A DNA stretch of 64,000 bases, from positions 124,001 through 188,000 of the forward strand of contig NZ_CP011382.1 in the NCBI RefSeq assembly GCF_000734895.2. Reading direction: 5' to 3'. The DNA comes from Calothrix sp. 336/3 (GTDB taxonomy: Bacteria > Cyanobacteriota > Cyanobacteriia > Cyanobacteriales > Nostocaceae). The notes under the pieces are model-generated. The model had not been told where the DNA came from. It made no database searches and worked only from the letters and a program-made list of their open reading frames with translations. The first letter of the stretch is position 1. Each line of letters starts with the position of its first letter. Below, one piece after another: positions 18,317 to 19,588 of this stretch. Both the position numbers and the translations under genes were made by a program.

Positions 18317-19189
18317 CTAGGCTGCGGATAAACAAATCGGGGCAAGTTTTGTACCTACCCCGATGTTTGTAGAGATATTTCTGCCCACGGATGCTGCAAT
18401 GGGTTTAAGACTCTCAACTAAATCCACCATTTCTGTTAGAGATAATGCTTGACGAGCATCAGAAACTGATTTTTCTGGTTCCGGGTGACATTCAATGATT
18501 AAACCATCAGCACCGCAAGCAATAGCAGCTTTTGCCATGGGTGCAACCAGTTCCCGCTTGCCGACAGCATGGGAAGGATCGACAATCACAGGCAGGTGGG
18601 TAATTTGTTTGAGAGCGGCAACTGCACCTAAATCTAGGACATTGCGGGTATAGTCGTCGAAACTGCGAATACCTCGCTCACACAGAACAACATCAGGATT
18701 GCCGTGACTGAGGATATATTCTGCTGCCATGACAAACTCTTCAATGGTGGCAGCTAAACCACGTTTCAGGAGGATAGGTTTATTAACTTGCCCTAAAGCT
18801 TTGAGTAAATCGAAGTTTTGCATATTCCGACTACCGACTTGTAGCATATCAGCATAGGTCGCTATGGTAGGGATTTGGGAAATTGACATGACTTCGGTGA
18901 TTACGGGTAAATTGTAGCGTGATCGCACTAATCCTAAAATCTCTAGTCCTGCTTCTCCCATTCCTTGGAATGCATAGGGAGAGGTACGAGGTTTGTAAAC
19001 TCCACCCCGTAAACCATGAACTGAGTTGACTAAATGCTGGGCAACATTTTCCATCTGCCCTTGACTTTCCACAGCACAGGGTCCTCCAATGATCACTAAC
19101 TCTCTACCACCAAAGACTATTTGCTCTGACAGTTTCACCAGACTTTGTTGTTGAGCAGGGGATTTAGCAGTAAGCTGGGCATTTTTCAT
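18317..19189 (-). CDS. aroF: 3-deoxy-7-phosphoheptulonate (DAHP) synthase, core-only type I-beta
   Basis: The enzyme joins phosphoenolpyruvate and erythrose-4-phosphate in the first step of the shikimate pathway. Motifs include IGGPCAVES, RGGVYKPRTSPYAFQG, LLKRGLAATIEEF, LCERGIRSFD and IVDPSHAVGKRELV with the metal-binding residues. The start at 19189 has GGAG nine bases upstream; the longer frame to 19300 runs through the leader terminator and is rejected. The 290-residue product starts almost directly with the barrel, so it lacks the roughly 70-residue N-terminal ferredoxin-like regulatory domain of feedback-inhibited relatives such as that of Thermotoga. Control probably occurs in the leader RNA upstream. 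Confidence 0.92.
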   Translation of the reverse strand: MKNAQLTAKSPAQQQSLVKLSEQIVFGGRELVIIGGPCAVESQGQMENVAQHLVNSVHGLRGGVYKPRTSPYAFQGMGEAGLEILGLVRSRYNLPVITEVMSISQIPTIATYADMLQVGSRNMQNFDLLKALGQVNKPILLKRGLAATIEEFVMAAEYILSHGNPDVVLCERGIRSFDDYTRNVLDLGAVAALKQITHLPVIVDPSHAVGKRELVAPMAKAAIACGADGLIIECHPEPEKSVSDARQALSLTEMVDLVESLKPIAASVGRNISTNIGVGTKLAPICLSAA

Positions 19190-19215: not shown

Positions 19216-19253
19216 AAAAACAAAAAACCCGGAACCTGATGTCAGTTCCGGGT
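19216..19253 (-). terminator. Attenuator terminator 2 of the DAHP synthase leader
   Basis: On the minus strand ACCCGGAAC and GTTCCGGGT form a perfect 9-bp stem around a 9-base loop, followed by a T-tract (TTTTTTGTTTTT). It lies between leader peptide 2 and the DAHP synthase start codon, so it would stop transcription before the gene. Its 5' arm can instead pair with TTCCGGGT at 19285-19278, in the last codons and stop of leader peptide 2. Confidence 0.88.
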
Positions 19254-19275
19254 GCATTTCGTCGCCATGACACTA

Positions 19276-19335
19276 CTACCCGGAATTGAGGCGGGACCAA
19301 AAATAAAAACCATAAAACCAGGTGTAGTTTGACAT
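19276..19335 (-). CDS. Aromatic leader peptide 2 (attenuation)
   Basis: The short ORF encodes MSNYTWFYGFYFWSRLNSG and ends with TAG. Eight of 19 residues are aromatic (two Trp, three Phe, three Tyr). A weak AAGAGAG ribosome site lies about 10 bases upstream. The 3' end of the ORF holds TTCCGGGT (19285-19278), which is complementary to the 5' arm of the next terminator. A ribosome stalled in the aromatic run would leave this segment free to form the antiterminator; a ribosome at the stop codon would cover it and let the terminator form. This matches the trp/phe leader logic known in enterobacteria. Peptide function beyond control is not expected. Confidence 0.8.
   Translation of the reverse strand: MSNYTWFYGFYFWSRLNSG
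19278..19285 (-). promoter_or_regulatory. Antiterminator arm 2
   Basis: TTCCGGGT on the minus strand is perfectly complementary over 8 bases to ACCCGGAA at 19253-19246, the 5' arm of terminator 2. It overlaps the last codons and part of the stop codon of leader peptide 2, which places it under a terminating ribosome. Confidence 0.72.
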
Positions 19336-19392
19336 GACGATGAAACTCTCTTATTTAACCTAATGAAACAAAGCAGAAAGACTCCATTCCCT

Positions 19393-19429
19393 AAAAAAAC
19401 AAAAACCGCAGAGAGTACTCTCTGCGGTT
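19393..19429 (-). terminator. Attenuator terminator 1 of the DAHP synthase leader
   Basis: Positions 19404-19429 are a 26-base perfect palindrome (AACCGCAGAGAGT and its complement). On the minus strand it is followed by TTTTTGTTTTTTT, giving a strong intrinsic terminator; the plus strand has no T-tract. It follows leader peptide 1 by about 30 bp. Confidence 0.85.
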
Positions 19430-19475
19430 CACCGGGCAGTTTCCATCAGGAAACGAGACTCACCCCCGGTGAACC
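19426..19475 (-). promoter_or_regulatory. Antiterminator hairpin 1
   Basis: GGTTCACCGGG (19475-19465, inside the last codons of leader peptide 1) is complementary over 11 bases to CCCGGTGAACC (19436-19426). The second arm shares its AACC with the 5' foot of terminator 1, so the two structures compete at the base of the terminator stem. An inner hairpin GTTTCC/GGAAAC sits in the loop. Confidence 0.65.
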
Positions 19476-19516
19476 ACCCTAAACCAATAGTAAAAGTAAA
19501 ACTTGTTGTGGGACAT
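19460..19516 (-). CDS. Aromatic leader peptide 1 (attenuation)
   Basis: The short ORF encodes MSHNKFYFYYWFRVVHRG and ends with TGA. Seven of 18 residues are aromatic, with six of them (FYFYYW, then F) in a row. The predicted transcription start lies only about 37 bases upstream, so the longer frame reaching 19714 cannot be translated as a whole. A short AGG-type ribosome site is near the ATG. Its last codons form one arm of antiterminator 1. Together with leader peptide 2 it makes a serial two-stage sensor for charged Phe, Tyr and Trp tRNAs in front of the DAHP synthase. Confidence 0.78.
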   Translation of the reverse strand: MSHNKFYFYYWFRVVHRG

Positions 19517-19559
19517 TTGCCTACCCTTGGGGGAGAAACTTGCGAAACTCAATAACCTC

Positions 19560-19588
19560 AACCTAGCAAAGGAACTCCAAATCGTCAA
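19560..19588 (-). promoter_or_regulatory. Predicted promoter of the DAHP synthase leader
   Basis: On the minus strand TTGACG (19588-19583) and TAGGTT (19565-19560) are 17 bp apart, a good sigma-70-type spacing. Transcription should begin near 19553, just upstream of leader peptide 1. No equally good promoter is seen between the two leader peptides. Confidence 0.55.

What the first reader, a model, noticed from the sequence alone, without database searches (positions are those of the whole stretch)
19216..19588. Two aromatic leader peptides in series with competing terminators in front of DAHP synthase
Seen in the minus strand: a promoter-like pair, then MSHNKFYFYYWFRVVHRG, a hairpin system with a strong terminator, then MSNYTWFYGFYFWSRLNSG and a second terminator, then the DAHP synthase. 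Each peptide is about 40% aromatic. In each case the end of the peptide ORF is complementary (11 and 8 bases) to the 5' part of, or bases adjoining, the next terminator stem. This is the known logic of ribosome-mediated attenuation (trp/phe leaders of enterobacteria). Two such devices in series for one gene, sensing Phe, Tyr and Trp together in a cyanobacterium, is something I do not know to be described. Serial stages could sharpen or combine responses.
Basis: partly seen in the sequence, partly recalled or inferred. Interest (0 to 1): 0.93.

Follow-up and report, generated by a model that had tools for sequence, protein, structure and literature searches.

The report
Tandem aromatic attenuators of DAHP synthase
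In front of a gene for the first enzyme of aromatic amino-acid synthesis, this cyanobacterium and most sampled relatives that have the gene carry two short reading frames packed with Phe, Tyr and Trp codons, each followed by a predicted transcription terminator, and the pair likely works as two ribosome-operated switches in series that would open the gene when these amino acids run short.

Summary
Downstream of one conserved promoter-like site and before a DAHP synthase gene lie two aromatic-rich leader ORFs, each with its own terminator-like hairpin. Both ORFs occur in 183 of 193 non-redundant orthologous upstream regions and in 21 families of the class. The 3' end of each ORF is complementary to its terminator 5' arm. 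Stage 1 shows clear compensatory change; stage 2 hardly varies. A stop-codon ribosome would cover that segment; a ribosome stalled at most aromatic codons would leave it free. The enzyme lacks the ferredoxin-like domain of its long paralog. Best reading: two ribosome-mediated attenuators in series, both reading Phe, Tyr and Trp. Nothing was tested at the bench; equilibrium folding alone does not show the switch, so it must be co-transcriptional. A 2016 paper sees no reliable data on attenuation in cyanobacteria; the published two-leader cases found (Salmonella mgtCBR, ermB) differ in signal or level. New variant of a known kind.

The parts
19560..19588 (-). promoter-like site TTGACG-N17-TAGGTT with extended -10 (TGCTAGGTT); transcription start predicted near 19553
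   Evidence: TTGAC-N-TGnTAnnnT lies within 110 nt upstream of leader 1 in 168 of 183 loci (mean 0.15 in base-shuffled sequence); 0 of 190 between leader 2 and DAHP synthase. The 0 of 162 between T1 and leader 2 says little, as that stretch averages only 37 nt.
19460..19516 (-). leader ORF 1, MSHNKFYFYYWFRVVHRG, stop TGA
   Evidence: leader 1 assigned in 184 of 193 non-redundant loci.
19465..19477 (-). segment 1 of stage 1, GTGGTTCACCGGG, in the 3' end of ORF 1
   Evidence: pairs with 19436-19424; own helix of at least 7 bp in 182 of 184 loci.
19439..19454 (-). small hairpin GTTTCC-TGAT-GGAAAC between the two segments (possible pause hairpin)
   Evidence: helix 2: 75.7% of cells paired, 4 of 6 pairs with a change on both sides.
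19424..19436 (-). segment 2 of stage 1, CCCGGTGAACCGC; its last 7 bases are the start of the T1 5' arm
19393..19430 (-). terminator T1: 12-bp hairpin 19430-19403 and T-tract 19402-19393
   Evidence: outer 9 pairs 98.8% paired over 73 sequences; inner 3 pairs 54.5%.
19276..19335 (-). leader ORF 2, MSNYTWFYGFYFWSRLNSG, stop TAG
   Evidence: leader 2 assigned in 190 of 193 non-redundant loci.
19278..19285 (-). segment 1 of stage 2, TTCCGGGT, end of ORF 2 into its stop codon
   Evidence: pairs with the T2 5' arm; own helix of at least 7 bp in 185 of 190 loci.
19216..19253 (-). terminator T2: 10-bp hairpin 19253-19227 and T-tract 19226-19216; 5' arm 19253-19244 is also the pairing partner of segment 1
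18317..19189 (-). DAHP synthase (290 aa), the controlled gene; no ferredoxin-like N-terminal domain
   Evidence: TIGR01361 above cut-off; PF00793 and a weak NeuB match; the long paralog also has PF18152.

Best explanation
Two short aromatic-rich leader ORFs, each followed by a predicted intrinsic terminator whose 5' arm can pair with the 3' end of that ORF, stand in series between one predicted promoter and the DAHP synthase gene and likely act as two ribosome-operated attenuators that would let transcription through when charged Phe-, Tyr- or Trp-tRNA is short. Shown by sequence and comparison: ORFs, hairpins, complementarity, their conservation, and covariation in stage 1. Inferred: with ample aromatic amino acids a coupled ribosome runs to the stop codon, covers segment 1, and the terminator forms. 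With scarcity the ribosome stops at an aromatic codon, segment 1 stays free and captures the terminator 5' arm before the 3' arm is made, so polymerase reads on. A polymerase must pass both stages, so readthrough would be roughly the product of two probabilities: lower leak and a steeper response than one stage. By footprint, stage 1 would respond mainly to Phe and Tyr codons and only partly to its last Trp codon, stage 2 more fully to all three.
For: Both leaders in 183 of 193 non-redundant orthologous regions, with 147 and 145 distinct peptides; F, Y and W all present in 181 of 184 leader-1 and 190 of 190 leader-2 peptides. Class-wide: 98 of 106 class genomes with the short enzyme (E up to 1e-100) also match the stage-2 model (E up to 0.01) (overlap counted by hand); of 40 hits picked by hand, strong and weak, 29 hold DAHP synthase and 24 of those show both ORFs by rule. 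Stage-1 antiterminator: 9 of 13 pairs, and 4 of 6 in the small inner hairpin, have a change on both sides; over both helices 13 pairs against 9.0 shuffled (3 of 500 as high), 58 double-change cells against 16.9 (0 of 500), covariation score 0.194 against 0.129 (0 of 500) and 0.028-0.089 when slid. Own pairing beats pairing with another locus when the tails differ: 26.7 against 19.0 in stage 1, 21.5 against 19.9 in stage 2, 3001 sampled pairs each. Geometry: a ribosome at the stop codon covers at least 90% of segment 1 in 178 of 182 and 184 of 186 loci; at least 3 aromatic codons leave it clear in 179 of 182 and 185 of 186 (2 and 4 loci with weak helices were left out). Before the 3' arm is made, predicted antiterminator probability is 0.91 and 0.88 with the ribosome at the first aromatic codon and 0.00 at the stop, where the segment is masked by construction. 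One conserved promoter-like site upstream of leader 1. The enzyme lacks the ferredoxin-like domain. No Rho above cut-off in the genome.
Against: No transcript, ribosome or starvation data. Equilibrium folding of the whole module does not show the switch: terminator probability differs by more than 0.3 between last-Trp stall and stop in only 1 of 73 (stage 1) and 3 of 71 (stage 2), and the means move only from 0.56 to 0.83 and 0.62 to 0.88 between first aromatic codon and stop, so kinetics must do the work. Stage-2 covariation is thin: 4 double-change cells in 565. Without a ribosome stage 2 is predicted to form its antiterminator only about half the time (0.55). Leader 1 has almost no Shine-Dalgarno-like sequence (1 of 182; leader 2, 78 of 186), so its translation is not assured. 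In L141 and L207 leader 1 stops at 13 aa, before segment 1. The F-Y-F-W core and its third codon positions are more fixed than a plain codon count needs. Some lineages have one stage only. Many of the 193 loci are close relatives, so counts are not independent.
Confidence: 0.85

Rival explanations
1. Arrest-peptide control: the nascent F-Y-F-W peptide itself stalls in the tunnel in response to a free aromatic amino acid or another effector, as TnaC does with Trp, and the codons matter little.
For: F-Y-F-W occurs in 150 of 184 leader-1 and 162 of 190 leader-2 peptides; in leader 2 those four residues are each 97-99% fixed among 140 aligned distinct peptides, although F and Y codons differ by one base and both would be sensed.
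Against: In more distant families the aromatic residues change identity while staying aromatic (WQFTFYFF, YWLFSFFFF, NWYYGFFY). Residues after the core follow the RNA pairing (VHR, VRP, VHL). Third positions are also fixed (TTT 297 of 300 in leader 1; background 0.69-0.74), which a peptide would not need.
Confidence: 0.1
2. Only one stage regulates; the other is a back-up or a relic.
For: Seven loci show leader 2 only and one leader 1 only; of 8 class genomes with the enzyme but no stage-2 model match, 5 show leader 1 only by rule, four of them from one family.
Against: Both stages are kept in 183 of 193 regions and 21 families, with matching arms in 182 of 184 and 185 of 190 loci; a relic would decay.
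Confidence: 0.1
3. The terminated leader RNAs or peptides act in trans on other genes, as reported for the leader peptide peTrpL of Sinorhizobium.
For: T1 and T2 would release small RNAs of about 160 and 340 nt with a defined 3' end (inferred from the parts); literature precedent for peTrpL (start of the abstract of PMC7298713 seen in the listing).
Against: No target was looked for; the conserved arms are fully explained by cis pairing.
Confidence: 0.05
4. Plain terminators that insulate the gene, with aromatic ORFs by chance.
For: T-rich DNA gives Phe codons by chance; 10 such ORFs exist in the window.
Against: Only these two are followed by terminator-like hairpins; conserved in order and pairing.
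Confidence: 0.01

Closest known systems
trp/phe/his-type ribosome-mediated transcription attenuation (enterobacteria; Actinobacteria, PMC1262725 passages read)
   Same: leader ORF rich in codons of the end product, intrinsic terminator, mutually exclusive RNA pairing, biosynthetic target gene
   Different: two stages in series; all three aromatic amino acids in each; the leader 3' end pairs directly with the terminator 5' arm instead of the segments 1:2, 2:3, 3:4 (recalled layout); cyanobacterial
Salmonella mgtCBR tandem attenuators (PMC3641672; abstract and one Discussion section read)
   Same: two leader ORFs in series in front of one operon
   Different: there the two ORFs sense different signals (ATP, proline) and the stem-loops do not resemble intrinsic terminators; here both have intrinsic-terminator-like hairpins and read the same three amino acids
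ermB induction through two leader peptides (PMC8274638; title and start of abstract in the listing only)
   Same: two leader peptides act on one gene
   Different: translational attenuation, antibiotic signal
uORFC-13-1 motif upstream of aroF in Acholeplasma (PMC8632094; one section read)
   Same: predicted Phe-sensing uORF with terminator in front of a DAHP synthase gene
   Different: a single uORF, 24 sequences, one genus plus environmental sequence, prediction only
Tandem same-ligand riboswitches and tandem T-boxes (recalled, not looked up)
   Same: two copies of one sensor in series, thought to steepen the response
   Different: RNA or tRNA sensors, no translated leader

Membership tests
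ribosome-mediated transcription attenuator | leader ORF with regulatory codons for the end product | tested here: met
   F, Y and W all in 181 of 184 leader 1 and 190 of 190 leader 2.
ribosome-mediated transcription attenuator | intrinsic terminator between leader ORF and gene | tested here: met
   by sequence; termination itself not measured.
ribosome-mediated transcription attenuator | conserved alternative pairing that excludes the terminator | tested here: met
   Stage 1. Stage 2: conserved complementarity but little covariation.
ribosome-mediated transcription attenuator | promoter upstream of the leader | tested here: met
   168 of 183 loci, by consensus only.
ribosome-mediated transcription attenuator | readthrough rises on starvation and needs translation of the leader | not testable with these tools
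   Needs reporters or RNA-seq.
classical four-segment trp attenuator | 1:2, 2:3 and 3:4 pairings with control codons inside segment 1 (definition recalled) | tested here: not met
   segment 1 lies after most control codons and pairs with the terminator 5' arm.
T-box or other curated RNA family | match to an Rfam model | tested here: not met
   one match at E 0.63, 12.6 bits against a gathering score of 90, outside the leader; none at E up to 0.1 in 6 relatives.
TnaC-like arrest peptide | stalling set by nascent residues, not by codon starvation | tested here: inconclusive
   fixed core in most of one order, variable elsewhere, third positions fixed too.
tandem attenuator of the mgtCBR kind | two stages responding to different signals | tested here: inconclusive
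   Nearly all leaders of both stages carry all three aromatic residues; real thresholds unknown.

The most novel reading that the evidence does not exclude
Cyanobacteria gate entry into aromatic amino-acid synthesis with a class-wide, two-stage ribosome switch: the first tandem attenuator in which both stages read the same three end products. The second stage multiplies the first into an ultrasensitive response, and the nearly invariant UUUUAYUUUUGG core shared by both leaders is a dedicated stall sequence that makes three amino acids count as one signal.
Probability: 0.3. Interest if true: 0.9.

Novelty: new variant of a known kind. Interest (0 to 1): 0.82.

Why it matters
A 2016 paper on leader genes states that there is no reliable data on attenuation in cyanobacteria (PMC4833913, passages read). 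A conserved two-stage attenuator would show that a leader-ribosome race controls a central pathway there, and so make transcription-translation coupling in cyanobacteria directly testable at one locus. It also gives a natural case for asking what a second stage for the same signal adds (leak, steepness, noise), and a control point for engineering aromatic products: an enzyme copy without the ferredoxin-like domain, held at the RNA level instead.

Tried and rejected
Rejected or not supported: an Rfam family; copies in front of other genes (single stage-1 match in the genome; of the 11 class hits without DAHP synthase in the stretch, 10 show no leader pair, and the eleventh, L255, is cut by a contig end and has both leaders); leaders in front of the long DAHP synthase paralog (0 of 13). 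A scan of two leader peptides against NCBIfam was empty, but peptides this short carry little weight. Equilibrium folding with ribosome masks did not show the switch; folding before the 3' arm is made did. A de novo fold also offered a local hairpin GTTCAC/GTGAAT over the leader-1 stop and a pairing of the leader-2 Trp-Pro codons with the T2 3' arm; neither has a pair changed on both sides, so both are left open. No tree was built, so whether the tandem is ancestral or spread sideways is not settled. Literature: the listings of nine searches (several cut at 10 or 20 rows) showed no description of aromatic leaders or attenuation at a cyanobacterial DAHP synthase; most papers in them were not opened, and subscription journals are mostly not held.

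Full report
Observation. On the minus strand the window reads promoter-like TTGACG-N17-TAGGTT (19588-19560), leader 1 MSHNKFYFYYWFRVVHRG (19516-19460), hairpin 19430-19403 with a T-tract, leader 2 MSNYTWFYGFYFWSRLNSG (19335-19276), hairpin 19253-19227 with a T-tract, and a 290-aa DAHP synthase (19189-18317). Using one rule on the whole window (ATG or GTG start, at most 30 aa, at least 5 of 10 residues aromatic, a hairpin of at least 8 bp with T-tract within 75 nt), 10 aromatic ORFs exist and only these two have the hairpin.

Conservation. The enzyme was used as bait: 80 named loci and 388 genomes of the order, with 100 further upstream regions fetched (five rows left out). Of 210 regions 205 had at least 330 nt, 193 after removing exact duplicates. 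After hand correction of pattern-sorted rows, 183 of 193 have both leaders. The ten others: L134 and L149 have different upstream DNA (in L134 the leader-2 core is still readable), L157, L159, L178, L188, L206, L209 and L210 show leader 2 only, L208 leader 1 only. In two of the 183 (L141, L207) leader 1 stops early, at 13 aa. Peptides vary (147 and 145 distinct) but all three aromatic residues stay in 181 of 184 and 190 of 190. Many loci are close relatives, so these are not independent counts.

Range. A stage-2 covariance model matched 110 of 291 genomes of the class at E up to 0.01; the short enzyme is present in 106 of 291 at E up to 1e-100; 98 genomes are in both lists, counted by hand. 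Forty hits, strong and weak, were picked and fetched: 29 contain the enzyme, 24 of these show both ORFs by rule, 2 leader 1 only, 3 leader 2 only; of the 11 without the enzyme, 10 show no leader pair and one (L255) is cut by a contig end. Of the 8 genomes with the enzyme but no model match, 3 have both leaders, 5 leader 1 only by rule. By the family labels, both leaders occur in 21 families (11 in the order, 10 elsewhere in the class). No convincing copy was seen in front of another gene, within these samples.

RNA pairing. Stage 1: GTGGTTCACCGGG at the end of ORF 1 pairs over 13 bp with CCCGGTGAACCGC, whose last seven bases begin the T1 5' arm. Stage 2: the end of ORF 2 pairs with the T2 5' arm (8 bp in the window, median 10 in the set). 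Helices of at least 7 bp exist in 182 of 184 and 185 of 190 loci; shuffled tails score 13.5 and 12.9 against own scores 29.2 and 23.4. When tails differ, own pairing exceeds cross pairing clearly in stage 1 (26.7 against 19.0) and slightly in stage 2 (21.5 against 19.9). On 73 diverse sequences 9 of 13 pairs of the stage-1 antiterminator and 4 of 6 of its inner hairpin have a change on both sides; for both helices together 13 pairs against 9.0 in shuffles (3 of 500 as high), 58 cells against 16.9 (0 of 500), covariation 0.194 against 0.129 (0 of 500; at most 0.089 when slid). Stage 2 is too conserved to test well: 3 pairs, 4 cells; yet one divergent lineage (L170, L184) has a changed terminator and a changed, still complementary ORF end. 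The outer nine pairs of T1 are conserved.

Geometry. Assuming a footprint from -12 to +15 of the P site, a ribosome at the stop codon covers at least 90% of segment 1 in 178 of 182 and 184 of 186 loci, and a median of 4 of 7 (stage 1) and 7 of 8 (stage 2) aromatic codons leave it clear (2 and 4 loci with weak helices left out). Folding the RNA before the terminator 3' arm exists gives antiterminator probabilities of 0.90/0.55 without a ribosome, 0.91/0.88 at the first aromatic codon, 0.58/0.65 at the last Trp and 0.00/0.00 at the stop (stage 1/stage 2, 73 and 71 sequences; the zeros follow from masking). Complete transcripts at equilibrium mostly favour the terminator, except stage 1 without a ribosome (0.41), so the decision must be kinetic, as is accepted for trp (recalled).

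Context. A TTGAC-N17/18-TGnTAnnnT site lies upstream of leader 1 in 168 of 183 loci and in 0 of 190 stretches between leader 2 and the gene; the 0 of 162 between T1 and leader 2 is weak evidence because that stretch averages 37 nt. One transcript should therefore run through both stages. The genome has a second, 352-aa DAHP synthase (52% identity) with the ferredoxin-like domain PF18152, which the attenuated one lacks. No Rho above cut-off was found, only matches of 21 and 20 bits against 509, which fits intrinsic termination. I infer that this enzyme copy is held by RNA rather than by that allosteric domain.

What does not fit a simple codon count. Both leaders share F-Y-F-W (150 of 184, 162 of 190). 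At these slots TTT is used in 297 of 300 (leader 1) and 313 of 324 (leader 2), and TAT in 145 of 150 in leader 1 but only 60 of 162 in leader 2, against 0.69-0.74 TTT and 0.59-0.66 TAT in surrounding genes and 0.25 TTT in the DAHP synthase genes. The loci are related, so no probability is given, but a constraint on RNA or on wobble-read codons is plausible. Leader 1 ends in TGA in 177 of 184, leader 2 in TAA or TAG in 186 of 190. Leader 1 lacks a Shine-Dalgarno-like sequence (1 of 182; leader 2, 78 of 186).

Literature. PMC4833913 (passages): no reliable data on attenuation in cyanobacteria. PMC3641672 (abstract, one section): tandem attenuators in Salmonella mgtCBR, different signals, stem-loops unlike intrinsic terminators. 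PMC8274638 (listing only): ermB induction depends on two leader peptides, translational. PMC8632094 (passages, one section): single uORF before aroF in Acholeplasma. PMC1262725 (passages): actinobacterial attenuators; the word cyanobacteria does not occur. [quoted passage not shown] PMC7693272 (passages): DAHP synthase transcript changes in a cyanobacterium; the word attenuation does not occur. The listings of nine text searches showed no prior description.

Verdict. A tandem, same-signal, ribosome-mediated attenuator of DAHP synthase is the best reading (0.85). It works like the trp/phe kind but with a different pairing layout and in two stages; functional proof is missing.

Noticed in passing
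window 19516-19460 and 19335-19276; most relatives: Third codon positions of the F-Y-F-W core are nearly invariant (TTT TAT TTT TGG in leader 1), far beyond local codon usage.
   Followed up: partly
leader-1 and leader-2 stop codons, 184 and 190 loci: Leader 1 ends almost always in TGA (177 of 184), leader 2 almost never (4 of 190); a local hairpin GTTCAC/GTGAAT spans the leader-1 stop.
   Followed up: partly
A2 columns 92-99 with 197-201: The Trp-Pro codons of leader 2 can pair with the base of the T2 3' arm, which may explain the conserved W-P.
   Followed up: no
L134, L149: Upstream DNA differs, apparently through insertions, removing one or both leaders; possible natural knock-outs of the control region.
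   Followed up: no
L263-L266: Four genomes of one family of the class show leader 1 and its terminator only, a natural single-stage version.
   Followed up: partly
window 18336-18364: Hairpin with a weak T-tract at the 3' end of the DAHP synthase gene, overlapping its last codons; possible gene terminator.
   Followed up: no
L004, between T1 and leader 2: Three copies of a 32-base hairpin sequence at 36-base spacing lie between the two stages, so spacing between stages is flexible.
   Followed up: no
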